A stretch of 64,000 bases of DNA from Pseudomonas sp. ADAK13 (GTDB lineage Bacteria > Pseudomonadota > Gammaproteobacteria > Pseudomonadales > Pseudomonadaceae): NCBI RefSeq assembly GCF_012935715.1, contig NZ_CP052860.1:4650001-4714000 (forward strand). Reading direction: 5' to 3'. Of this stretch, positions 4,552 to 61,543 are shown one piece after another. How positions within the stretch are numbered: the first letter of the stretch is position 1; the number at the start of each line of letters is the position of its first letter. A model generated the notes under the pieces. That model was not told the origin of the DNA, searched no databases, and worked only from the letters and a program-made list of their open reading frames with translations. A program made the translations under genes and the position numbers.

Positions 4552-5571
4552 ATGGCTCGAAAAATCAGCTATCAGCAGGCAATCAACGAAGCCCTGGCCC
4601 AGGAAATGCGCCGTGACCAGAGCGTGTTCATCATCGGTCAGGACGTGTCCGGCGGCACCGGCTCGCCCGGTGAGCAGGACGCCTGGGGCGGCGTGCTGGG
4701 TGTCACCAAAGGCCTGTACCCGGAATTCCCCGACCGCGTGCTGGACGCGCCACTTTCCGAAGTCGGCTACGTGGGCATGGCCGTCGGCGCCGCCACCCGC
4801 GGCATGCGCCCGGTGTGCGAGTTGATGTTCGTCGACTTTATCGGCTGCTGCCTCGACCAGTTGCTCAACCAGGCGGCGAAGTTTCGCTACATGTTCGGCG
4901 GCAAGACCACCACGCCGCTGGTGGTGCGCGCCATGTACGGCGCCGGCCTGCGTGCGGCGGCCCAGCATTCGCAGATGCTCACCTCGATGTGGACCCATAT
5001 TCCCGGGCTCAAGGTGGTGTGCCCGGCCACGCCCTATGACGCCAAGGGCATGCTGATCCAGGCGATCCGCGACAACGACCCGGTGATTTTCCTCGAACAC
5101 AAATTGCTCTACAGCCTCCAGGGCGACGTGCCGGAAGAGCTGTACACCGTGCCGTTCGGCGAAGCCAATTTCGTGCGTGAAGGCAACGACGTGACCCTGG
5201 TGACCTACGGGCGCATGGTGCATGTCGCCCTGGAAGCGGCGGCCAACCTGGCGCGCCAGGGCATCGACTGCGAAGTACTCGACCTGCGCACCACCAGCCC
5301 GCTGGACGAAGACAGCATCCTCGAAAGCGTGGAAAAAACCGGGCGCCTGGTGGTGATCGACGAGTCCAACCCGCGCTGCTCCATCGCCACGGATATCAGT
5401 GCATTGGTGGCGCAACGTGGGTTCCGTTTCCTGCGCGCACCGATCGAAATGGTCACCGCGCCCCACACGCCGGTGCCGTTCTCTGATGCCCTGGAAGACC
5501 TGTACATCCCCAACGCAGCGAAGATCGAAGCGGCCGTGCTGAAGATCGCCGACAAGAGGAACGCCGCATGA
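4552..5571 (+). CDS. acoB: Acetoin dehydrogenase E1 component, beta subunit
   Basis: A 339-residue transketolase-like E1 beta subunit. The N-terminal part 'ISYQQAINEALAQEM', the LSEVGYVGMAVGAA stretch and 'FVDFIGCCLDQLLNQAAK' are characteristic of AcoB/PdhB proteins. The C-terminal transketolase domain contains VLDLRTTSPLDEDSI and VVIDES. It completes the heterotetrameric E1 with AcoA. A 39-bp gap from acoA contains GGAGAAG as ribosome binding site. The stop overlaps the acoC start by 4 bp (ATGA), indicating translational coupling. Confidence 0.93.
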   Translation: MARKISYQQAINEALAQEMRRDQSVFIIGQDVSGGTGSPGEQDAWGGVLGVTKGLYPEFPDRVLDAPLSEVGYVGMAVGAATRGMRPVCELMFVDFIGCCLDQLLNQAAKFRYMFGGKTTTPLVVRAMYGAGLRAAAQHSQMLTSMWTHIPGLKVVCPATPYDAKGMLIQAIRDNDPVIFLEHKLLYSLQGDVPEELYTVPFGEANFVREGNDVTLVTYGRMVHVALEAAANLARQGIDCEVLDLRTTSPLDEDSILESVEKTGRLVVIDESNPRCSIATDISALVAQRGFRFLRAPIEMVTAPHTPVPFSDALEDLYIPNAAKIEAAVLKIADKRNAA

Positions 5572-9231: not shown

Positions 9232-11636
<2,405 letters not shown>

Positions 11637-11644
11637 TTGATTGT

Positions 11645-12461
11645 GTACATATCCGTTTCTTCGGTAACGGCGGCTTATGGTTTCGCTCTTACAGCGACTC
11701 ACTTTGGAAGAGCCCCAAAGTAAGCAAAGGGCTCTGCCCCGCCTGTCGGCACCTCGCTAAGGCTCGGTGTTCCCTCACTCCGGCATTGCTCCGCGGGCCG
11801 CCGCGACGGGGCGTCCCTGCCCCGTCGCGGCTAAACCGGCGTCCTGCCGGTTTACCCGCTCCTCAATCCCTGCGTTCGGCCTCGGGCTTATTGGGGCAGT
11901 CAGGGCCAGATCAAGATCAAAAGCAAGAGCACAGCGGCCTACAGGCCGGCTTGAGTGGTAGAAGCCAGATCAAAAGCCAAAGCGAAAACAGAGCTGCTTT
12001 TCTGTGGGAGCTGGCTTGCCTGCGATGCAGACAACTCGGTTTTTCAGATGCACCCAGTTGATGCCATCGCAGGCAAGCCAGCTCCTACAGGGGGACTGTG
12101 TCCGCTTTAGATTTTGATTTTGCTCCACACCACTCAAGCCGGCCTGTAGGCCGCTGTGTTCTTGATCTTGCTTTTGATCTTGATCTTAGGCGCCCCGTTA
12201 AACCACGCTGGCCGAACGCAGGCTTTGGAGCGTGGGTAACCCGGCAGGACGCCGGGTTAGCCGCGCTGGGCCAAGGATGGCCCATCGCGGCGGCCCACGG
12301 TCCAAAGCCGGAGTGAGGGAACACCGAGCCTAGGCGAGGTGCCGAGTGGTGGGGCAAGAGCCTTTTGGTTACTTTTGGCTGGGCCGGCATTCCGGCTCCT
12401 TTCAAAAGTGACCCGCTGTAAGAGCGGAACCAATTTAAGCCATCACCCAAATAACGGATAT
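11645..12461. repeat. Long REPIN-centred inverted repeat, copy A
   Basis: It begins GTACATATCCGTTTCTTCGG and ends in AACGGATAT. Left arm is about 358 bp, an 87-bp REPIN lies at 12003-12089, and the right arm is about 372 bp and imperfectly complementary to the left. Arms contain nested hairpins. Left-arm block is of the CGACGGGGC...GCCCCGTCG form; the right arm carries the alternative GGCCATCC/TGGCCC form. It fills the space between the amine oxidase gene and the convergent binding-protein gene; no convincing gene lies inside. Confidence 0.9.
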
Positions 12462-12474
12462 TCACCCCCAAAGC

Positions 12475-13512
12475 CTACCGCTCAATCGACCGACTCCACC
12501 GCGCATTCCACTCCGGCCGCGCCTGGTTCACCTGGTCCCAATCAATCGAAATCGCCGTCTGCAAATAACGGTTCATGGCCTCCACCCGCGCCCGGGTTTT
12601 GTCGGTCGTCGGCGTAGTAGGGTTCGAAGGAATCTGATCCCCCAATTCCAGCGCCGGTGCCTGCGCCTCAGCGGTCAACAAGAACTGCGCCAGTTTCTGC
12701 GCCAACTCCGGCTGGTCATTCCGCGCAATCACACACTCCGCCACGTTCAGCACCACCGCACCTTCCTTCGGCTGCGCATACTCCATCGGCACACCCAACA
12801 ACTGCTGGGTGGTCACCTGCGTCGGCGTCAGCGGAAAGATCGCCGCCTCATCCGTCTGCACCATCTCGGAAATCTTCGCCGAACTGGCGATGTATTCCAG
12901 CACGTTAGGCCCAACCGTTTTCGGCCAGGCCTTGAACCCCGGCTCCACGTTGGTCTCGCTGCCGCCCTGAATCCGGTTGAACATCAGGAACCCGTGCAGC
13001 CCAAAGGTGGAGGAGGCCAGGGACTGGAACACTACCTTGTCCTTGAAGCGCGGGTCTGCCAAATCCATCCACGACGTCGGCGCCGCCCAGCCCTTTTCCT
13101 TGAACATCTTGGCGTTGTAACCCAACCCGGTCACCCCGAGCGTCACCGCAACTGCCTCTTCCTTGATTTTGGCCTTGGCCGGAATCTGGTCCAGGGTCGG
13201 GTTGGGCGTGAGCTTCTCGCACAGCCCCATGGAGATCGCGCGGTACATGATGCCGTCATCGAGGAACATCACGTGCATCTGCGGGTTGTCCTTGTTGGCC
13301 TGCACCTTGGCGAGGATGTCCGACGAGGTGCCGGGCACGATCACTACCTTGACGTTGTTGGCCTTCTCGAACGCGGGCAGCACTTTGTCGGCGTAGACCC
13401 GTTCCATGGTGCCGCCGTTCATGCCCAGGTACAGCGTCGGTGCGGCGTGTGCCGCCGTGCTCAACAGGGTGAGGCACAGGCAAGACAGCGCAGTACGTTT
13501 GATCATGTGCAT
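12475..13512 (-). CDS. Periplasmic ABC transporter substrate-binding protein (spermidine/putrescine or Fe3+/opine type)
   Basis: A 345-residue protein with signal peptide (RTALSCLCLTLLSTAAHA). The mature region 'LYLGMNGGTMERVYADKVLPAFEKANNVKVVIV', cited in part, is the fold start of PotD-like and AfuA-like binding proteins. LGVTGLGYN and the C-terminal 'VEAMNRYLQTAISIDWDQVN' are typical of this group. AGGAAG precedes the ATG. It is the last gene of the operon 18923 to 12475 and presumably supplies the substrate specificity of the PotABC-like transporter in it. It is only 11 bp downstream of the dehydrogenase gene. Confidence 0.85.
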   Translation of the reverse strand: MHMIKRTALSCLCLTLLSTAAHAAPTLYLGMNGGTMERVYADKVLPAFEKANNVKVVIVPGTSSDILAKVQANKDNPQMHVMFLDDGIMYRAISMGLCEKLTPNPTLDQIPAKAKIKEEAVAVTLGVTGLGYNAKMFKEKGWAAPTSWMDLADPRFKDKVVFQSLASSTFGLHGFLMFNRIQGGSETNVEPGFKAWPKTVGPNVLEYIASSAKISEMVQTDEAAIFPLTPTQVTTQQLLGVPMEYAQPKEGAVVLNVAECVIARNDQPELAQKLAQFLLTAEAQAPALELGDQIPSNPTTPTTDKTRARVEAMNRYLQTAISIDWDQVNQARPEWNARWSRSIER

Positions 13513-19995: not shown

Positions 19996-20032
19996 CGGGT
20001 GTTGGCCGCAATTGAGATCAACGGGGGGGTGA

Positions 20033-20865
20033 GTACATATCCGTTTCTTCGGTAACGGCCACCTATGGTTTCGCTTTTACAGCGACTCACTTTGGAAAAG
20101 CCCCAAAGTAAGCAAAGGGCTCTGCCCCGCCTGTCGGCACCTCGCCTAGGCTCGGTGTTCCCTCACTCCGGCGATGCTCCGCGGGCCGCCGCGATGGGCC
20201 ATCCTTGGCCCAGCGCGGCTAAACCGGCGTCCTGCCGGTTTACCCGCTCCGCACCACCTGCGTTCGGCCTCGGGCTTATTGGGGCAGTTAGAGCCAGATC
20301 AAGATCAAAAGCAAGAGCACAGCGGCCTACAGGCCGGCTTGAGTGGTAGAGGCCAGATCAAAAGCCAAAGCCAAAGCGAAAGCCAAATCTGAAACTGCTG
20401 CAGCTCTGCTTTTCTGTGGGAGCTGGCTTGCCTGCGATGCAGACAACTCGGTTTTTCAGATGCACCCAGTTGATGCCATCGCAGGCAAGCCAGCTCCCAC
20501 ATTTGACCGTGCCCGCTTTTAATTTTGATTTTGCCTTTGCTTCACACCACTCAAGCCGGCCTGTAGGCCGCTGTGCTGTTGATCTGCTTTTGATCTTGAT
20601 CTTAGGCGCCCCGTTAAACCACGCTGGCCGAACGCAGGTAGTACGGAGCGGGTAAACCGGCAGGACGCCGGTTTAGCCGCGACGGGGCAGGGACGCCCCG
20701 TCGCGGCGGCCCGCGTAGTAATGCCGGAGTGAGGGCACACCGAGCCTAGGCGAGGTGCCGAGTGGTGGGGCAAGAGCCTTTTGGTTACTTTTGGGCTCCT
20801 TTCAAAAGTGACCCGCTGTAAGAGCGGAACCCATATCAGCCATCACCCAAATAACGGATATGTAC
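20033..20865. repeat. Long REPIN-centred inverted repeat, copy B (most symmetric copy)
   Basis: Termini are exact: GTACATATCCGTT at the left, ending ...AACGGATATGTAC at the right. Left arm 382 bp, 87-bp REPIN at 20415-20501, right arm 364 bp. Arms contain small hairpins such as CGCT-N5-AGCG near each end, and larger ones (AAACCGGC-GTCCT-GCCGGTTT). It lies between an IclR gene and the convergent LuxR-type regulator gene. No convincing gene inside; each arm has a mirrored open frame discussed under findings. Confidence 0.92.
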
Positions 20866-26542: not shown

Positions 26543-26629
26543 TGTAGGAGCTGGCTTGCCGGCGATGCAGGCGACTCGGTCGGTCAGTTAAACCGAGGTG
26601 ATGCCATCGCTGGCAAGCCGGCTCCTACA
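26543..26629. repeat. REPIN between urtA and urtB
   Basis: An 87-bp inverted repeat, TGTAGGAGCTGGCTTGCC at the left and its complement ending GGCTCCTACA. It has the same length as the REPINs at the centre of the long repeats. Inside a co-directional operon it may act as a 3' stabiliser of the urtA message or a partial terminator. Confidence 0.85.
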
Positions 26630-30209: not shown

Positions 30210-30910
30210 CTTGGCGGGGTGCATATCCGTTTCTTCGGTAACGGCTGCCTATGGTTTCGCTCTTACAGCGAGTCACTTTGCAAAAGCGGCAAAGTAACCA
30301 AAACGCTCTGCCCCGCCTGTCGGCGCCTCGCTGTGGCTCGGCGTTCCCTCACTCCGGCATTGCTCCGCGGGCCGCCGCGACGGGGCGTCCCTGCCCCGTC
30401 GCGGCTAAACCGGCGTCCTGCCGGTTTACCCGCTCCTCAATCCCTGCGTTCGGCCTCGGGCTTATTGGGGCAGTCAGATCAAAATCAAAAGCAAGAGCAC
30501 AGCGGCCTACAGGCCGGCTTGAGTGGTAGAAGCCAGAGCAAAAGCCAAAGCGAAAGCAGAGCTGCTTTTCTGTAGGAGCCGGCTTGCCGGCGATGCAGAC
30601 ACCTCGGTTTTTCAGGTACACCGAGGCGATGCCATCGCAGGCAAGCCAGCTCCCACATTTGACCGTGCCCGCTGGAGATTTTGATCTTGATGTTGCCTTT
30701 GCTTCACACCACTCAAGCCGGCCTGTAGGCCGCTGTGCTGTTGATCTGCTTTTGATCTTGATCTTAGGCGCCCCGTTAAACCACGCTGGCCGAACGCAGG
30801 TAGTACGGAGCGGGTAAACCGGCAGGACGCCGGTTTAGCCGCGACGGGGCAGGGACGCCCCGTCGCGGCGGCCCGCGTAGTAATGCCGGAGTGAGCAACC
30901 GTGTCGAAAT

Positions 30911-32008
<1,098 letters not shown>

Positions 32009-32146
32009 GGCACACCGAGCCTAGGCGAGGTGCCGAGTGGTGGGGCAAGAGCCTTTTGGTTACTTTTGGGCTTTTCAAAAGTGACCCGCTGTAAGAGCGG
32101 AACCGATATCAGCCATCACCCAAATAACGGATACACACACAGCCCG

Positions 32147-39951: not shown

Positions 39952-39964
39952 TTCTTTTGGTGTT

Positions 39965-40789
39965 GTACATATCCGTTTCTTCGGTAACGGCTGCCTATGG
40001 TTTCGCTCTTACAGCGACTCACTTTGGAAAAGCCCCAAAGTAAGCAAAGGGCTCTGCCCCGCCTGTCGGCACCTCGCTCAGGCTCGGTGTTCCCTCACTC
40101 CGGCATTGCTCCGCGGGCCGCCGCGACGGGGCGTCCCTGCCCCGTCGCGGCTAAACCGGCGTCCTGCCGGTTTAGCCGCTCCTCAATCCCTGCGTTCGGC
40201 CTCGGGCTTATTGGGGCAGTCAGAGCCAGATCAAGATCAAAAGCAAGAGCACAGCGGCCTACCGGCCGGCTTGAGTGGTAGAAGCCAGAGCAAAAGCCAA
40301 AGCCAAAGCCAAATCTGAAACTGATGCAGCTCTGCTTTTCTGTGGGAGCTGGCTTGCCTGCGATGCAGACAACTCGGTTTTTCAGGTACATCCAGTTGAT
40401 GCCATCGCCGGCAAGCCAGCTCCTACAGGGGATCGTGGCCGCTTTAGATTTTGATTTTGCTTTTGCTCCACACCACTCAAGCCGGCCTGTAGGCCGCTGT
40501 GCTGTTGATCTGCTTTTGATCTTGATCTTAGGCGCCCCGTTAAACCACGCTGGCCGAACGCAGGCTTTGGAGCGTGGGTAACCCGGCAGGACGCCGGGTT
40601 AGCCGCGCTGGGCCAAGGATGGCCCATCGCGGCGGCCCACGGTCCAAAGCCGGAGTGAGGGCACACCGAGCCTAGGCGAGGTGCCGAGTGGTGGGGCAAG
40701 AGCGTTTTGCTTACTTTTGCGCTGTTCAAAAGTGAGCCGCTGTAAGAGCGGAACCAATTTAAGCCATCACCCAAATAACGGATATGTAC
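39965..40789. repeat. Long REPIN-centred inverted repeat, copy D
   Basis: GTACATATCCGTTTCTTCGG at the left, ...AACGGATATGTAC at the right. Left arm 376 bp, 87-bp REPIN at 40341-40427, right arm 362 bp. Its last base is directly adjacent to the TGA stop of the convergent monooxygenase gene (40790). Left-arm block is the CGACGGGGC form, right arm the GGCC form, as in copy A. Confidence 0.92.
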
Positions 40790-49970: not shown

Positions 49971-50963
49971 ATGCCTAGACCCGGCCCGCGCAACGCCCTC
50001 ACTGATATTCCCGGCCTGGAGGTTGGCCACGCCACAGACCTGCACGCCGACACCGGCGTCACGGTGATCCGCCCGGATGGTTTCTGGACTGCCAGTATCG
50101 ACATTCGCGGTGGCGGCCCTGGCGGTCGCGAAACAGCGGCGCTGGAGCCCGAGAACATGGTCGGCCAGCTTCACGCCCTGGTGTTTGCCGGTGGCTCGGT
50201 GTTTGGCCTGGGGGCCGCCGACGCGGTGGCGGCGAAATTGTCCCAGGACCAGGTGGGGTTGCATTTGAAGCCGGGTGCACCGGCGATTCCTATCGTGCCG
50301 GCGGCGGTGTTGCATGACCTGGCCAACGGTGGCGACAAGGATTGGGGCCTGGAGCCGCCGTATCGGCGGTTGGGGTTTGAGGCGCTGGCCAATGCCGGGC
50401 CGGACTTTGAACTGGGCTCGGTCGGGGCCGGGCGTGGGGCCATGGCCGGGGTGTTGAAAGGTGGGCTGGGTACGGCGTCCCTGGATTTAGGGGATGGCCT
50501 GGTGGTTGCCGCCTTGGTGGTGGCGAACCCGATTGGGTCGGTGTACATGCCCGATGGCGAGACGTTCTGGGCCTGGCCGTGGGAGGTGGCGGGGGAGTTT
50601 GGCGGGGCGCGGCCGGTGACACCGATGGACTGCAGTGACCCGATGCCGGAGTTGTCGCGGCTGGATTCCATGGGGCGTTTGCAAGCGGGGGCCAACACCA
50701 CGTTGGTGGTGGTGGCAAGTACGGCGCGGTTGACGGTGGCGGAGTGTAAGCGGGTGGCGATCATGGCTCAGGACGGGATTGCCCGGGCGGTGCGGCCGGC
50801 GCATTTGCCGTTTGATGGGGATACGGTGTTTGCGTTGGCCTCCGGGGCGGTGGAGTTGACGGATGGGCCGCGGCGGCAGGTGGAGATTGGGCGGATTGGG
50901 TCGGCGGCGGCTGACTGCGTGGCTCGGTCGATTGCCCGGGGGGTGTTTGCTGCGCGGGCTTAG
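49971..50963 (+). CDS. P1-family peptidase / DmpA-like aminopeptidase (S58)
   Basis: A 330-residue N-terminal-nucleophile hydrolase precursor. 'NALTDIPGLEVGHATD' opens the family fold; 'VFAGGSVFGLGAADAV' and GSVGAGRGAMAGVLKGGLGTAS (in part) follow. The self-cleavage site is expected in GANTTLVVVAS, before Thr243, which would become the nucleophile of the small chain. The family includes D-/beta-aminopeptidases and nylon-oligomer hydrolases. AAGGAAG lies upstream. Sigma-54 driven and divergent from the TonB operon. The last 450 bp are very G/T-rich. Confidence 0.87.
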   Translation: MPRPGPRNALTDIPGLEVGHATDLHADTGVTVIRPDGFWTASIDIRGGGPGGRETAALEPENMVGQLHALVFAGGSVFGLGAADAVAAKLSQDQVGLHLKPGAPAIPIVPAAVLHDLANGGDKDWGLEPPYRRLGFEALANAGPDFELGSVGAGRGAMAGVLKGGLGTASLDLGDGLVVAALVVANPIGSVYMPDGETFWAWPWEVAGEFGGARPVTPMDCSDPMPELSRLDSMGRLQAGANTTLVVVASTARLTVAECKRVAIMAQDGIARAVRPAHLPFDGDTVFALASGAVELTDGPRRQVEIGRIGSAAADCVARSIARGVFAARA

Positions 50964-50970
50964 GTTGGGG

Positions 50971-51786
50971 TGTATATCCGTTGTTTTTGTTATGGCCACT
51001 TAGGGTTTCGCTCTTACAGCGACTCACTTTGGAAAAGCCCCAAAGTAAGCAAAGGGCTCTGCCCCGCCTGTCGGCACCTCGCCTAGGCTCGGTGTTCCCT
51101 CACTCCGGCGATGCTCCGCGGGCCGCCGCGATGGGCCATCCTTGGCCCAGCGCGGCTAAACCGGCGTCCTGCCGGTTTACCCGCTCCGCACCACCTGCGT
51201 TCGGCCTCGGGCTTATTGGGGCAGTCAGATCAAGATCAAAAGCAAGAGCACAGCGGCCTACAGGCCGGCTTGAGTGGTAGAAGCCAGAGCCAAAGCGAAA
51301 ACCAAATCTGAAACGGATGCAGCTCTGCTTTTCTGTGGGAGCTGGCTTGCCTGCGATGCAGACAACTCGGTCTCTCAGGTGCACCGAGGCGAGGCCATCG
51401 CAGGCAAGCCAGCTCCCACATTTGACCGTGGCCGCTGTAGATTTTGATCTTGATGTTGCCTTTGCTTCACACCACTCAAGCCGGCCTGTAGGCCGCTGTG
51501 CTGTTGATCTGCTTTTGATCTTGATCTTAGGCGCCCCGTTAAACCACGCTGGCCGAACGCAGGTAGTACGGAGCGGGTAAACCGGCAGGACGCCGGTTTA
51601 GCCGCGACGGGGCAGGGACGCCCCGTCGCGGCGGCCCGCGGAGTAGTACCGGAGAGAGGGCACACCGAGCATTAGCGAGGTGCCGAGTGGTGGGGCAAGA
51701 GCCTTTTGGTTACTTTTGGGCTCTTTTCAAAAGTGACCCGCTGTAAGAGCGGAACCCATAGCAGCCGTTACCTAAATAACGGATAT
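50971..51786. repeat. Long REPIN-centred inverted repeat, copy E
   Basis: Left end GTATATCCGTTGTTTTTG, 87-bp REPIN at 51334-51420, right end CCTAAATAACGGATAT. Left arm about 363 bp, right arm 366 bp. The right terminus supplies the last four codons and stop of the convergent TTC38-like gene (51772). Left block is the GGCC form, right block the CGACGGGGC form. Confidence 0.9.
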
Positions 51787-55916: not shown

Positions 55917-56743
55917 TGCTGGTTCTTCGACGTTTTGTACGCCAGTCGTCGGCGCTGATTGGTGCGCTGTTTTTGCTGTTGCTGACGGTGTTGGCGATCG
56001 CTGCACCCTGGCTTACCAGCAGCTCGCCGTGGGAGATGAACAGCCAGCCGATGCTCACGCCATTCCACGACGCTGCCCATTGGCTGGGCAGTGACCTGCT
56101 CGGTCGCGACCTCGCCAGTGGCCTGCTGTACGGCGCGCGAGTGTCCCTGGCGGTGGGTGCCCTGGCCAGCCTGGCTACCCTGGTGGTCGGCCTGCTGGTG
56201 GGCGCCGTTGCCGGTTATTTTGGTGGTTGGGTCGACGGCGTGCTGATGCGCGTTGCCGAGTTCTTCCAGATCATTCCGCAACTGGTACTGGCGGTGATCC
56301 TGGTGGCGATTCTTGAGCCGTCCTTGTTCTCCATCGTGCTGGCAATCGCCCTGGTGGCCTGGCCCGCAGTGGCGCGTTTGGTCCGCAGTGAGTTCCTGAC
56401 CCTGCGCCAGCGCGAATTCGTGCAGGCCGCGCGGGTGCTGGGCCAGTCACCGCTGGGGATCATCGCCCAGCAGATTTTGCCCAACGCCCTGGCACCGTTG
56501 TTGGTGACCATGACGTTTGTCATGGCCACGGCGATCCTCACCGAAGCAGCCCTGGCGTTTCTCGGCTTGAGCGACCCGGAAGCCATGAGCTGGGGCTACA
56601 TGATCAATGCCTCCCGTGGCTTGCTGCGGGATGCCTGGTGGATGAGTTTCCTGCCGGGGCTGGCGATTGTGCTGTGTGTGCTGGCGGTCAATCGGGTGGG
56701 CGAAGGCTTGCGTGTGGCATTTGAGCCTGGGAGGTCGCTATGA
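55916..56743 (+). CDS. Dipeptide-type ABC permease, DppC-like
   Basis: A 275-residue permease. 'HWLGSDLLGRDLASGLLYGARVSLAVG' (in part) and 'REFVQAARVLGQSPLGIIAQQILPNALAP' (in part) match DppC/OppC. Its ATG shares one base with the DppB stop (TGATG). Confidence 0.9.
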   Translation: MLVLRRFVRQSSALIGALFLLLLTVLAIAAPWLTSSSPWEMNSQPMLTPFHDAAHWLGSDLLGRDLASGLLYGARVSLAVGALASLATLVVGLLVGAVAGYFGGWVDGVLMRVAEFFQIIPQLVLAVILVAILEPSLFSIVLAIALVAWPAVARLVRSEFLTLRQREFVQAARVLGQSPLGIIAQQILPNALAPLLVTMTFVMATAILTEAALAFLGLSDPEAMSWGYMINASRGLLRDAWWMSFLPGLAIVLCVLAVNRVGEGLRVAFEPGRSL

Positions 56744-58320
56744 CGTTATTGAGTGTCGAGCATCTGCGTATCGCCTTGCCGGCCGGTGCAGACCGCAGCC
56801 ATGCGCTGTATGACCTGTCGCTGCAACTGAACCGTGGCGAATGCCTGTGTGTGGTGGGTGAATCCGGCTCGGGCAAGTCGATGCTGGCCAAGGCGTTGTT
56901 GCGCCAGTTGCCGGCCCCGCTGACGGTGGAAAGCGGGCGCCTGGTGTTCCGGGATGAAGACCTGGCTGAACGCAGTGAAGAGGCCATGCGCCAACTGCGC
57001 GGGCGGGATATCAGCATGGTGTTCCAGGAACCCATGAGTGCCCTCAACCCACTGTTGCGGGTGGGCGAACAGATCGATGAAACCCTGCGCGCCCATGGCG
57101 TGGCAGCGGCACGCGTGCGGCGTCAGCGGGTGGTGGATTTGCTCGGCTATGTTGGCTTGCCCGACCCTGAGCGGCTGCGCCTGGCGTATCCGTTTGAACT
57201 GTCTGGCGGGCAGCGTCAGCGGGTGGTGATCGCCATGGCCCTGGCGTTTGATCCGGCATTGTTGATTGCCGATGAACCCACTTCGGCGCTGGACGTCACT
57301 ACCCAGGCGCAAATCCTCGACCTGCTGCGCAAGATCCAGCAGGACAAGGGCATGGCGCTGTTGTTTATCACCCACGACTTTGCCGTGGTCGAAGCGATTG
57401 CCGACCGGGTGCTGGTGCTGGAAAAAGGCCGGGTGGTGGAGCAGGGCACGGCGCCGGCGGTATTGCGTGTGCCCCGGGAAAACTACACCCGGCAATTGTT
57501 GGCGGCGGTGTCGGCGCAACCGCTGGTGCCGCGTGCGCCGGTCGCCGGTCCGGTGGTGTTGAAGGCCGAGGCATTGGGCAAGGTTTTCAGCAGTCGTAGC
57601 GGTTGGTGGGGGCGGCGTACCACCCAGGCGCTGGACGCGGTTCAGCTGCAATTGCGTGAAGGCGAGACGTTGGGGATTGTGGGGGAGTCGGGCTCGGGCA
57701 AATCGACCCTGGGCCGGTGCCTGGTGCGTTTGTTGCGCGCCGACAGTGGGCGGATCGAGTGGTTGGGGCGCGAGGTGGCGGGGCTGTCTGAAGGGCGGCT
57801 GCGACCATTGCGCCGTGAGGTGCAGATGATTTTCCAGGACCCGTTTGCGTCGCTCAATCCGCGGCAGACGGTGGGGCAGATCGTTATGACCGGGCCTTTG
57901 GTGCAAGGGGGTTCCCGGGTTGATGCTGAACGGCGGGCGCGTGAGTTACTGGAATTAGTGGGGTTGCCGGCAGCGGCGTTTGAGCGGTTTCCCCATGAGT
58001 TTTCGGGGGGGCAGCGCCAGCGGATCGGGATTGCCCGGGCGTTGGCGGTGGAGCCCAAGGTGTTGATTGCTGACGAGTGTGTGTCAGCGCTGGATGCGCT
58101 GGTTCAGGTGCAGATTCTGGAGTTGCTGGAGTCGCTGCAGCGGCGGTTGAAGTTGAGCATTGTGTTTATTACCCATGATTTGCGGGTGGCTGCGCGGTTG
58201 TGTGACCGGATTGCGGTGATGCACCGGGGGAGGGTGGTGGAGCAGGGGGAGACGGGGGTGCTGTTTGCGGATGCGCGGCATCCGTATACGCGGGAGTTGT
58301 TGATGGCTGAGGCGATCTGA
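56740..58320 (+). CDS. Fused dipeptide-type ABC ATPase (DppD-DppF fusion)
   Basis: A 526-residue protein with two complete nucleotide-binding domains. Domain 1: Walker A GESGSGKSM, signature LSGGQRQRV, Walker B LLIADEPTSALD. Domain 2: Walker A GESGSGKST, signature FSGGQRQRI, Walker B VLIADECVSALD, where Pro is replaced by Cys. It replaces the separate DppD and DppF subunits. From about 57500 the coding strand becomes increasingly G/T-rich (58021-58140: 50 G, 24 C) up to repeat copy F. Confidence 0.9.
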   Translation: MTLLSVEHLRIALPAGADRSHALYDLSLQLNRGECLCVVGESGSGKSMLAKALLRQLPAPLTVESGRLVFRDEDLAERSEEAMRQLRGRDISMVFQEPMSALNPLLRVGEQIDETLRAHGVAAARVRRQRVVDLLGYVGLPDPERLRLAYPFELSGGQRQRVVIAMALAFDPALLIADEPTSALDVTTQAQILDLLRKIQQDKGMALLFITHDFAVVEAIADRVLVLEKGRVVEQGTAPAVLRVPRENYTRQLLAAVSAQPLVPRAPVAGPVVLKAEALGKVFSSRSGWWGRRTTQALDAVQLQLREGETLGIVGESGSGKSTLGRCLVRLLRADSGRIEWLGREVAGLSEGRLRPLRREVQMIFQDPFASLNPRQTVGQIVMTGPLVQGGSRVDAERRARELLELVGLPAAAFERFPHEFSGGQRQRIGIARALAVEPKVLIADECVSALDALVQVQILELLESLQRRLKLSIVFITHDLRVAARLCDRIAVMHRGRVVEQGETGVLFADARHPYTRELLMAEAI

Positions 58321-58338
58321 TTCGTGGACGCTTTTGGG

Positions 58339-59155
58339 GTACATATCCGTTATTTAGGTAACGGCTACTTAGGGTTTCGCTCTTACAGCGACTCACTTTG
58401 GAAAAGCCCCAAAGTAAGCAAAGGGCTCTGCCCCGCCTGTCGGCACCTCGCCTAGGCTCGGTGTTCCCTCACTCCGGCGCTGCTCCGCGGGCCGCCGCGA
58501 TGGGCCATCCTTGGCCCAGCGCGGCTAAACCGGCGTCCTGCCGGTTTACCCGCTCCGCACCACCTGCGTTCGGCCTCGGGCTTATTGGGGCAGTTAGAGC
58601 CAGATCAAGATCAAAAGCCAAAGCACAGCGGCCTACAGGCCGGCTTGAGTGGTAGAAGCCAGATCAAAAGCCAAAGCGAAAACCAAATCTGAAACTGCTG
58701 CGGCTCTGCTTTTCTGTGGGAGCTGGCTTGCCTGCGATGCAGACAACTCGGTTTTTCAGATGCACCCAGTTGATGCCATCGCAGGCAAGCCAGCTCCTAC
58801 AGGGGGACTGTGTCCGCTTTAGATTTTGATTTTGCTTCACACCACTCAAGCCGGCCTGTAGGCCGCTGTGCTGTTGATCTGCTGTTGATCTTGATCTTAG
58901 GCGCCCCGTTAAACCACGCTGGCCGAACGCAGGTAGTACGGAGCGGGTAAACCGGCAGGACGCCGGTTTAGCCGCGACGGGGCAGGGACGCCCCGTCGCG
59001 GCGGCCCGCGGAGTAGTACCGGAGTGAGGGCACACCGAGCCCAAGCGAGGTGCCGAGTGGTGGGGCAAGAGCGTTTTGCTTACTTTTGCGCTGTTCAAAA
59101 GTGAGCCGCTGTAAGAGCGGAACCCATAGCGGCCATAACCGAAGAAACGGATATG
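58339..59155. repeat. Long REPIN-centred inverted repeat, copy F
   Basis: Left end GTACATATCCGTTATTTAGG, 87-bp REPIN at 58715-58801, right end GAAGAAACGGATATG. Relative to copies A-D the two outer ends are exchanged: the CGTTTCTTCGG-type end is at the right here. It is the only copy flanked by a downstream gene in the same direction, so it sits behind the importer operon and in front of a hydrolase gene. Confidence 0.9.
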
Positions 59156-59190
59156 CCCCCAATCCAAGCCACCGAGGAATCATAAACCCC

Positions 59191-60045
59191 ATGACCACCA
59201 CGTTCGATGACCTGCCACTGATCCGTGGCCAACAACTGGAAATCCGCCCCAACCGCCGCCTGAGTCTCACCCATCACGTGGGCACCACCCAACCCGACAC
59301 GGTGGTGTTCTTCTGCCACGGCGCCGGCGGCAACAAGGACCAATGGCGCCATCAATGGCAAGCCCTGAAAACAGAAGGCTACAGCCTGGTCGCCTGGGAC
59401 CTGCTAGGCCACGGCACCAGCGCAAAACCCCGCAACCCCGAGGCCTACGCCTGGCCCGAGCTGGTCGCCGACTACCTGGAAATCCTCAAACGCTACGGCG
59501 GCTCCCGCAACCTGATCATCGCCCACTCCTTCGGCACCGGCCTGACCCTCAGCACCTTGCTGGCCAAACCCGCGATCCCCATCGAATCCGCATTATTGCT
59601 GGGCACCCAACTGAACCGCCCCGGCAGAAGCGGCGGCCTGATGCGCCTGCCCGCCTGGATCCTGGAATGGCTGCGCCCACTGCTGGCCAAAGGTTTCCGT
59701 CAGGCCGCATGGAACGCCACCGCCGACCCCGCCCTGGTCGCCTACGAAGAAAAGCTCACCGAACGCAACCCGCTCTACATGTTCAAGGCCCTGATGAAAA
59801 ATGCCCAATGGCCAGACGCCAACGCACTGCTCACCCTGACTTTGCCGGTGAGCGTACAGGCCGGTGACAGTGACGGCCTGACCCCGGCCAGCGGCGGTGA
59901 AGCATTGGCCCGGCATCTACCCAATGCCACGTTCCAGTTGCTGCCCGACTGCGGCCACCAACTGATGCTGGAAAAGCCCGACGACGTGCTGGCCGCGTTT
60001 CACCGATTAAACGCCAAAACCCCGATCACGGCGCTGTCGGAATAA
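59191..60045 (+). CDS. Alpha/beta hydrolase
   Basis: A 284-residue alpha/beta-hydrolase. Oxyanion motif CHGAGGNKDQW, nucleophile elbow AHSFGTG, acid in GDSDGLTPA, His in DCGHQL. AGGAATC precedes ATG 59191; an upstream continuation into repeat copy F is not part of the gene. Its 3' end overlaps the convergent glycosyltransferase gene by 20 bp. The plus (coding) strand is C/A-rich here, the opposite of genes left of the repeats. Substrate unknown. Confidence 0.85.
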   Translation: MTTTFDDLPLIRGQQLEIRPNRRLSLTHHVGTTQPDTVVFFCHGAGGNKDQWRHQWQALKTEGYSLVAWDLLGHGTSAKPRNPEAYAWPELVADYLEILKRYGGSRNLIIAHSFGTGLTLSTLLAKPAIPIESALLLGTQLNRPGRSGGLMRLPAWILEWLRPLLAKGFRQAAWNATADPALVAYEEKLTERNPLYMFKALMKNAQWPDANALLTLTLPVSVQAGDSDGLTPASGGEALARHLPNATFQLLPDCGHQLMLEKPDDVLAAFHRLNAKTPITALSE

Positions 60046-61543
60046 ACGCCACGCTGCCACCGTCACGCTTGTGGAACAACCGCTCGCCATTGTCCGGCTG
60101 GGTACTGATCACCTGATGATCGCTGCCCAGGTAGGCCAGCGGCGCCGGGGCGTCCTTGGTGTACTGCGCGACAATAATCGTGCGCTGCGGGTCGAAGTGC
60201 CGGCCGCTGGTTTTGTCCAGCCACGCCATGAACGCTGCACTGCCACCCTCGCGCGGGAAGTCCTGGGTTTCAGCCACGTAGTAGAACGGCGCACCGTGGT
60301 TTTGCAGGTACATCGGCACCTTGTTGTCGACTTCCACCATCACCATCTGCCACTCATTCCACGGCGCGCTTTTCACCGCCTCGGCCTGCACGTCGTCGGC
60401 AAAACGGGTCACGCCGCCGTTGCCATTGGTCCACGGATACACCACCCCGAGCACCAGCAGCATCACTCCGGCGGCAATGCCGAACCCACGGTACCAGCCG
60501 CGCCCGATCGTGCCTTTGCGGGCGATACGCTCGCTGACCCACCAGGCCGCCAGCAACTGCGCGAACGGTACCAGCGGCAGCACGTAGTAACTGCGCCGGC
60601 TGCCGCTGGCGGTGAAGAACACAAACAGCAGGCCCAGGCCCCACACCAGCCAGCGCGTATTGGGCGGGGTGTCGCGCCAGTGCCGCATGGCGAGCCACAG
60701 GCCGAGGATCCAGCACGGGGCCCAGGGCAGTGTGTAGGTCGGCAGGTAGATCAGGTAGGTGTAGATCGGCCCCATGTGGTCGAACGGGTCGAAGAAGCGC
60801 ACCACGTTTTCCCGGAATACCAGTTCCAGGCCGCTTTCACCGTAGGTGGGCGCGCCGTAGAGATGGGAGAGTACAAACGGGATCGCGTAGAACGCCCCGG
60901 CGATGATCACCGCCAGCACCAGGCGCAGGTTGAGGTGGCGCTTGTAGCGCTGTTCGCTGAGCAGGTGCGGCAGCAGTACCAGGCCCGGCAGCACGAAGCC
61001 GATCAATCCCTTGAACAGCGACGTCACCGCCAGCAACAGGAAGAACACCGTGTAGCGCCCCAGCCGCGTGTCGTCCGGGCCGCGCCAGTACCACCAGACG
61101 GCCGCCAGCACACCGCACACGGTCAGCACGTCTGCCGTGGCCACCCGGGCCCAGAAGATGAAGTAGAAGGTGGTCGCGAGCATCCAGCCGGCAATCAGCC
61201 CGGTGCCCTTGCGGAACAGGCGCTCGCCGATCAGGTAGACCAGCCAGATGCTCAGCCACGCGGCGATCACCGATGACAGGCGCAGCGACCACGGCCCCAG
61301 GCCTCCCATCAGGTTGGCCAGGCCGGTGATCAGCCAGTACGACGGCAGGGGTTTGTCGTAATACGGCGTGCCCTTGAGGTACGGGTCGAAGTAGTCGCCG
61401 CTTTGCAGCATTTGCAGGGTGATGTTTGCCCAGCGGGTTTCCGGGCCCCACAGGTCGCGGGCGCCCAGGCCCAGCAGCAGAATCACGGCAGACACGCCCA
61501 GGAGCAGCAGCAGGGCGCCGCGTTCGGTTTTCCAGAAGTTCAT
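60026..61543 (-). CDS. GT39/ArnT-like glycosyltransferase
   Basis: A 505-residue multi-pass membrane protein with about 11 hydrophobic segments. The catalytic first loop contains LWGPETRWANITLQML and YLKGTPYYDKPLPSYWL, the pattern of lipid-phosphate sugar glycosyltransferases of family 39/83. ATG 61543 is chosen for the GGAAC upstream; a GTG at 61582 is possible. It follows arnT after a 59-bp gap (61544-61602) and is probably co-transcribed, acting on lipid A or another envelope glycan. Confidence 0.82.
   Translation of the reverse strand: MNFWKTERGALLLLLGVSAVILLLGLGARDLWGPETRWANITLQMLQSGDYFDPYLKGTPYYDKPLPSYWLITGLANLMGGLGPWSLRLSSVIAAWLSIWLVYLIGERLFRKGTGLIAGWMLATTFYFIFWARVATADVLTVCGVLAAVWWYWRGPDDTRLGRYTVFFLLLAVTSLFKGLIGFVLPGLVLLPHLLSEQRYKRHLNLRLVLAVIIAGAFYAIPFVLSHLYGAPTYGESGLELVFRENVVRFFDPFDHMGPIYTYLIYLPTYTLPWAPCWILGLWLAMRHWRDTPPNTRWLVWGLGLLFVFFTASGSRRSYYVLPLVPFAQLLAAWWVSERIARKGTIGRGWYRGFGIAAGVMLLVLGVVYPWTNGNGGVTRFADDVQAEAVKSAPWNEWQMVMVEVDNKVPMYLQNHGAPFYYVAETQDFPREGGSAAFMAWLDKTSGRHFDPQRTIIVAQYTKDAPAPLAYLGSDHQVISTQPDNGERLFHKRDGGSVAFIPTAP

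What the first reader, a model, noticed from the sequence alone, without database searches (positions are those of the whole stretch)
57500..59560. Strand composition flips around every long palindromic repeat, like a miniature replication terminus
Left of each of the six long repeats the plus strand is G/T-rich; right of each it is C/A-rich. Hand counts: near copy A, 11341-11400 has 25 G/9 C and 12481-12540 has 12 G/28 C. Near copy F, 58021-58140 has 50 G/24 C and 59221-59340 has 30 G/48 C. A control inside acoB (4861-4920) is balanced (17 G/20 C). In five copies the flanking genes converge, so gene direction is confounded; copy F is the key case because the gene on its right is on the plus strand and is still C/A-rich. 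C-to-T damage on the strand running 5'-3' into the repeat would give this pattern, for instance 3' single-stranded tails after repeated breakage or nicking of the palindrome, or local fork collisions. If real, the element shapes the codons of its neighbours over several hundred bases. The shorter repeats at 1254 and 6688 show a similar trend; the REPIN at 26543 does not.
Basis: partly seen in the sequence, partly recalled or inferred. Interest (0 to 1): 0.85.

Follow-up and report, generated by a model that had tools for sequence, protein, structure and literature searches.

The report
Mutation halo around palindromic DNA repeats
In this Pseudomonas-like chromosome, copies of a long palindromic repeat are flanked on both sides by about 1,000 bases in which one DNA strand has lost C and gained T and G, probably the scar of repeated breakage and repair, so a repeat appears to be rewriting the codons of its neighbouring genes.

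Summary
The strand flip is real and general. Around 68 copies of the ~830-bp palindrome, the strand running 5'-3' into the element is G/T-rich on both sides, fading to background at ~1 kb; third-position C falls from 45% to 9%. Gene direction does not explain it: 33 flanks whose gene points away show it too. It follows the inverted pair of arms. Pairs in relatives show it, single arms much less; orthologous flanks without the pair lack it, orthologues with a pair share it. In nadA, changes on this lineage are C>T 34, G>A 0. C is depleted in 16 of 16 neighbour contexts, which suggests mutation pressure. Best explanation (0.6): the palindrome folds into a hairpin that is cut (SbcD is encoded), ends are resected, and the exposed 3' strands deaminate and are copied with errors. 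Breakage and resection are inferred. Against it: copies split by 1.1-1.7-kb inserts show equal skew. It is not a terminus: dif lies at 5.97 Mb, though the fork-approach side is somewhat stronger. My ten paper searches listed no description of it.

The parts
11635..12456 (+). copy A of the long palindrome (two ~290-bp inverted arms, tips ATATCCGTT...AACGGATAT, REPIN-like centre)
   Evidence: profile match; flank excess +.372/+.044
20025..20856 (+). copy B
   Evidence: flank excess +.286/+.174
30212..32129 (+). copy C, right arm split by a 1112-bp insert
   Evidence: flank excess +.212/+.083
30911..31852 (-). IS110-family transposase gene inside the insert of copy C
   Evidence: NF033542, 227.9 bits over cut-off 140
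39955..40780 (+). copy D
   Evidence: flank excess +.277/+.337
50960..51781 (+). copy E
   Evidence: flank excess +.176/+.301
58334..59149 (+). copy F, the copy of the finding; folds end to end as one hairpin when single-stranded
   Evidence: -365.8 kcal/mol against -151.9+-5.5 for 20 shuffles
57334..58333 (+). left halo of copy F: plus strand G/T-rich, in the 3' part of a plus-strand ABC-transporter ATP-binding gene (56740-58320)
   Evidence: +.217; gene family; extent from the mean profile
59150..60149 (-). right halo of copy F: minus strand G/T-rich (plus strand C/A-rich), covering the 5' part of a plus-strand alpha/beta-hydrolase-like gene (59191-60045)
   Evidence: +.183; gene family (below the family cut-offs)

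Best explanation
The element is a long quasi-palindrome of two inverted ~290-bp arms. SHOWN: wherever the inverted pair is present, the ~1 kb on each side drifts to G/T on the strand that runs 5'-3' into the element, by strand-specific C>T with A>G and C>G, regardless of the direction of the neighbouring gene; orthologous sites without the pair do not show this. INFERRED: when the element is single-stranded, mainly at the replication fork, the arms pair into a hairpin that SbcCD or a similar nuclease cuts. The 5' ends of the break are resected for a few hundred bases, the 3'-ended strands on both sides stand single-stranded, C (and A) in them deaminate or are copied with errors, and gap filling after recombination fixes the changes. 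Repeated over evolutionary time this leaves a composition halo.
For: Symmetric two-sided decay to ~1 kb with the sign expected for 3'-ended tails. Independent of gene direction, in coding and non-coding bases. Pairs versus single arms: excess .184+-.008 own pairs (135 flanks).139+-.015 in 21 relative pairs from 8 genomes (42 flanks).254 for the one pair in G120, against .083 and .057 at tips and .018 and .010 at bases of single arms (42 arms from 6 genomes; 39 in G120) (the genome count of singles is mine). Same-site orthologues, differences within 600 bp, own keto/other amino: reverse = 866:235 where the relative has one arm (12 comparisons, 8 flanks, 5 sites), 485:168 where none was found (7), but 479:323 where it has a pair (13); beyond 1 kb 263:231, 219:146, 471:347. 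nadA: own copy has 4-fold keto .89 in the last 300 bp, the highest of 81; the 80 orthologues range .29-.73. Polarised: amino>keto 46 vs keto>amino 3 on this lineage, 106 vs 78 summed over five relatives; derived sites within 350 bp 26/300 vs 10-20 of about 309. C depleted in 16 of 16 neighbour contexts and no octamer strongly over-represented. Element folds into one hairpin. SbcD is encoded, 166.8 bits. An interrupted 480-bp palindrome in E. coli forms a lagging-strand hairpin that is processed to recombination-repaired breaks (PMC4245961, abstract); inverted repeats in yeast raise mutation on both sides through breaks (PMC3681665, abstract and passages).
Against: Copies whose arms are separated by 1.1-1.7-kb inserts have the same excess (.185+-.022, 17 flanks; full .184), unless the inserts are recent. 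Among own copies arm-arm identity does not raise the excess (rho -.24, p .07, n=58); in relatives it does (rho .46, p .04, n=21). Single arms still show a weak, one-sided effect at the tip that a symmetric break does not predict. RecBCD would normally degrade both strands as far as Chi (general knowledge), so a 1-kb tail needs another resection route. The fork-approach side is stronger (.230 vs .161, 53 of 68), part of which is the ordinary leading-strand background. A>G and C>G accompany C>T. At site 20 the right flank shows no own excess over the single-arm relative (39:43). No break was observed.
Confidence: 0.6

Rival explanations
1. Replication forks pause or uncouple at the hairpin or at an arm-bound protein, without a break. 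Lagging template is exposed on the approach side and leading template on the departure side, over about one Okazaki length, and deaminates.
For: Approach side stronger in 53 of 68 own copies and in 8 of 10 pairs in G017, G010 and G120 after background subtraction (.236 vs .147; recounted from the pairs printed). The left arm faces the fork in 57 of 68 copies. Length scale about 1 kb. Single-arm effect lies on the tip side, and tips mostly face the fork.
Against: After background subtraction own approach and departure are close (.199 vs .169). Single arms in G120 give the same tip effect facing (.080 near.029 far, 26) or not facing (.033 near, -.025 far, 14) the fork. Departure-side skew opposes the usual replication sign.
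Confidence: 0.2
2. The arms are the ends of a mobile unit. A trans-acting transposase or nuclease nicks or cuts at the tips, and flanks are resected after each event; single arms are poor substrates.
For: Conserved tips, concerted similarity of arms inside each genome, insert-split copies with undiminished skew, one-sided tip effect of single arms, orientation bias.
Against: No cognate enzyme identified; I did not search for one. Pairs sit at the same sites in several species (sites 43 and 60), which does not look like frequent transposition.
Confidence: 0.12
3. The pair prefers to form or insert where such a composition flip already exists.
For: Composition was not sampled before and after an insertion in real time.
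Against: Orthologous flanks without the pair are balanced, and the own nadA changes are derived.
Confidence: 0.03
4. Transcription direction or distance to a gene end causes the skew.
For: 40 of 68 copies lie between convergent genes; element-free convergent junctions have a small excess (.038).
Against: 33 away-pointing flanks +.167 vs .010 in 399 start controls, p 2e-14; divergent copies +.150/+.161.
Confidence: 0.02
5. Selection for G/T-rich recombination signals (Chi-like) facing the break point.
For: GCTGGTGG 2.57 per 10 kb near vs 1.81 far on the strand toward the element (octamers recalled, not looked up).
Against: The excess is what composition gives: its reverse complement falls from 2.31 to .74; GCTGGCGC is not raised (1.47 vs 1.60); no octamer stands out over a Markov expectation.
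Confidence: 0.02

Closest known systems
Break-associated mutagenesis at long inverted repeats in Saccharomyces cerevisiae (Saini et al. 2013, PMC3681665; abstract and passages seen)
   Same: Inverted repeats or palindromes raise mutation on both sides; long single-stranded regions and error-prone synthesis proposed; C:G transversions among the changes.
   Different: Engineered yeast reporters, reaching 8 kb, dependent on polymerase zeta, no strand-specific composition reported in the passages I saw. Here natural, fixed, about 1 kb, bacterial, strand-specific.
SbcCD cleavage of chromosomal palindromes in Escherichia coli (Azeroglu et al. 2014, PMC4245961; abstract seen)
   Same: Long palindrome folding on a replication template, cut and repaired by recombination.
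   Different: Perfect or 20-bp-spaced arms, laboratory constructs; here arms are 82-87% alike with ~230 bp between, and cleavage is not shown.
Mutation hot spots beside double-strand breaks in E. coli (recalled from memory, not looked up)
   Same: Excess mutation close to a break.
   Different: Induced by a nuclease; no evolutionary composition halo.
Intergenic repeat families of Pseudomonas fluorescens (Silby et al. 2009, PMC2718517; passages seen)
   Same: Interspersed, hairpin-forming, mostly between convergent genes.
   Different: No composition halo described in the passages seen; I could not match the arm to a named family such as the 320-bp R200, whose consensus is in a supplement.
Replication terminus skew flip (dif region)
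   Same: Same sign: G/T-rich strand running into the point from both sides.
   Different: 1 kb instead of megabases, at least 68 places, dif is elsewhere.

Membership tests
Fragile palindrome with break-associated mutagenesis | Long inverted repeat able to form a hairpin | tested here: met
   One end-to-end hairpin, z -39; arms 82-87% alike
Fragile palindrome with break-associated mutagenesis | Changes in flanks depend on the inverted pair | tested here: met
   Pairs vs single arms, relatives, p 4e-5; same-site orthologues
Fragile palindrome with break-associated mutagenesis | Effect falls as arms are moved apart | tested here: not met
   Insert-split copies equal (.185 vs .184); recent insertion would explain it but was not dated
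Fragile palindrome with break-associated mutagenesis | Physical double-strand breaks at the repeat | not testable with these tools
   Needs break mapping
Fragile palindrome with break-associated mutagenesis | Hairpin nuclease present | tested here: met
   SbcD, TIGR00619, 166.8 bits; SbcC not searched
Replication terminus or polar fork trap | Site of the dif/terminus | tested here: not met
   dif-like exact match only at 5.974 Mb (pattern recalled)
Replication terminus or polar fork trap | Effect depends on the direction of fork arrival | tested here: inconclusive
   Approach side stronger for pairs; single arms indifferent in G120
REPIN | Short REP pair as the unit; halo around lone REPINs | tested here: not met
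   The unit is ~830 bp with a REPIN-like centre; 88 flanks of lone REPIN-like hits have weak GC and negative TA skew

The most novel reading that the evidence does not exclude
The repeats are a standing set of chromosomal break and recombination points, kept alike within a genome by the repair they provoke. The mutation halo is a readable, genome-wide record of where and in which direction ends were resected, and it continually rewrites the 3' ends of neighbouring genes.
Probability: 0.3. Interest if true: 0.92.

Novelty: new variant of a known kind. Interest (0 to 1): 0.85.

Why it matters
A repeat that looked like inert intergenic filler leaves a strong, strand-specific substitution footprint in the coding sequence of its neighbours: near it, 4-fold sites carry 10% C instead of about 46%. 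It would give a sequence-only assay for chronic breakage or fork trouble at natural palindromes, show the single-strand damage spectrum of a bacterium without a mutation-accumulation experiment, and warn that codon bias, gene calls and substitution rates near such repeats are not neutral references. Natural single-arm versions at orthologous sites make the cause directly testable.

Tried and rejected
Gene orientation, gene ends and convergent transcription: rejected. Lone REPINs as cause: weak and opposite in TA. True terminus: rejected. Pre-existing skew: rejected by orthologues. Chi selection: rejected. A purely per-arm polar effect, suggested and apparently tied to the fork in a few single arms, was weakened in G120, where facing and non-facing arms behave alike after background. 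My first replication coordinates (terminus guessed at 5.6 Mb, origin 1.9 Mb) were wrong and were replaced by dnaA at 2.249 and dif at 5.974 Mb; orientation is then 57 of 68, not 60. Arm identity and spacer length as dose: inconclusive. Rfam's TwoAYGGAY matches led no further.

Rows dropped: six partial hits; 4-fold test uses 129 flank sets with at least 40 sites within 500 bp (129 of 129 above .53), and one flank with fewer sites, left of 1241748, is .46; two flanks had no such sites. Relative loci '<><>', '><>' and '<<' are left out of the pair and single classes. Regions in relatives were chosen by me from capped listings, not at random. 'None' means no arm found within 1.5 kb of the aligned end in the DNA held; the own site near 7171086 so labelled holds half a copy and is still skewed. 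nadA sums use relatives above 86.5% identity only (5 of those aligned on one flank, 3 on the other). Several comparisons share a site, so counts are not independent. In one search, independent of the own pairs, relatives' pairs gave 209:116 against single arms (far 108:94), 770:595 against none (far 555:606) and 873:863 against other pairs (far 799:903): the same direction, weaker, with individual flanks that show nothing.
Full report
What was checked. The six long repeats are ~830-bp quasi-palindromes: two inverted arms of about 290 bp ending in ATATCCGTT...AACGGATAT and a REPIN-like centre. Genes were called with a codon-usage script.

The observation. Over 136 flanks, the strand running toward the element has GC skew .44 at 0-50 bp.26 at 100-200.20 at 300-400.11 at 600-800.05 at 800-1000 and .01-.02 beyond; TA skew .33 falling to near zero; left and right alike. 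Third codon positions of genes pointing at the element go from C .447, G .367, T .103, A .084 far away to C .086, G .599, T .256, A .060 in the last 50 bp. In two-fold codons T/(C+T) rises from .24 to .73 and G/(A+G) from .59 to .90. The first 50 bp also show amino-acid-changing positions shifted.

Not gene direction. Flanks with the gene pointing away (33) have an excess of .167+-.014, 32 of 33 positive; toward flanks (102) .189+-.010; controls are .010 (399 gene starts) and .023 (398 gene ends); five copies between divergent genes give .150 and .161. Orthologue evidence for away-pointing flanks is thinner: site 26 right is raised near (59:27, 66:34, 68:26, 83:33) but also partly far (30:15, 35:18, 38:29), and site 20 right shows nothing (39:43).

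The pair matters. Relatives carry the same arms in two states: inverted pairs, or single arms, of which G142 and G120 hold almost only the latter among the sites fetched. In 21 pairs of eight genomes GC skew is .44.35.20.12.11.08 over the first 600 bp; in 42 single arms .07.05.13.10.06.04. Against local background, relative pairs have .139+-.015 (39 of 42 flanks positive), the G120 pair .254 on both sides, single-arm tips .083 and .057, bases .018 and .010. Single tips exceed element-free convergent junctions only slightly (p .04). Thus a weak one-sided tip effect exists, and the strong two-sided effect needs the inverted pair.

It is acquired. nadA ends 3 bp from one copy; its last 300 bp have 4-fold keto .89, the highest of 81 sequences, while 80 orthologues, none with a full copy there, range from .29 to .73 (two have weak REPIN-like hits). 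Changes assigned to this lineage by comparison with five close relatives and an outgroup majority are amino>keto 46, keto>amino 3, among them C>T 34, C>G 9, A>G 3, G>A 0; the five relatives sum to 106 and 78. At other sites the own flank differs from its orthologue toward keto 866:235 where the relative has a single arm, 485:168 where none was found, but only 479:323 where it too has a pair, with far controls 263:231, 219:146 and 471:347. Reciprocal comparisons starting from relatives' pairs point the same way more weakly. Two sites have pairs in four species each (own, G017, G141, G140; own, G017, G120, G142) and share the skew.

Replication. dnaA is at 2.249 Mb and an exact dif-like match at 5.974 Mb. 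The left arm faces the arriving fork in 57 of 68 copies (p 1e-8), and the approach side is stronger.230 against .161, in 53 of 68. Part of this is the ordinary leading-strand background (+.037 and -.010 at 2-3 kb); after subtraction .199 and .169. In G120 single arms facing and not facing the fork have similar tip effects after background.

Mechanism. The sign, the symmetry, the 1-kb reach and the dependence on an inverted pair fit breaks at the hairpin with 5' resection, leaving 3'-ended single strands whose C and A change. The element folds as one hairpin, -365.8 against -151.9+-5.5 kcal/mol for 20 shuffles; SbcD is encoded. C is depleted in all 16 neighbour contexts and no octamer stands out, as expected of damage or copying errors and not of a selected motif. 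Arms are more alike within a genome (own .873) than between orthologous sites of different species (.759-.843), and left and right arms form separate classes (.93 and .91 within.82 between), so the copies recombine or are replaced in concert; single-arm genomes do so too, so this is not proof of pair-specific breaks. Against: insert-split copies are equally skewed and own arm identity does not matter.

Literature. I saw passages of PMC2718517, the abstract and passages of PMC3681665, the abstract of PMC4245961, and listings only for the rest. Ten searches listed no report of such a halo; the library lacks most subscription papers, so this is not proof of absence.

Verdict.

Noticed in passing
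window 30911-31852 (copy C); also 831817-833778 and 3695411-3697336 of the chromosome: A 1112-bp insert sits at the same arm position (profile 706/707) in three copies; in copy C it encodes an IS110-family RNA-guided transposase, so the arm looks like a preferred target. The other two inserts were not annotated.
   Followed up: partly
chromosome copies at 92945, 106136, 288002, 5002502, 5106299, 5385962: Inserts of 1650-1661 bp in six copies, at several positions of the element; not identified.
   Followed up: no
68 copies, chromosome-wide: Element orientation follows replication: the left arm faces the arriving fork in 57 of 68. Single arms in G120 face it in 26 of 40.
   Followed up: partly
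arms in the own genome and eleven relatives: Concerted evolution: arms resemble others of the same genome more than those at the same site in another species.
   Followed up: partly
own chromosome 7171086-7171554: A half copy whose flanks are still skewed (+.109/+.341), possibly the fossil of a lost pair.
   Followed up: partly
window 58489-58551, 20183-20245, 51120-51182 (minus), 12214-12316, 40556-40658 (plus): Arms match Rfam TwoAYGGAY RNA just above its cut-off (43.4-45.6 vs 43); that family may partly describe such repeats.
   Followed up: no
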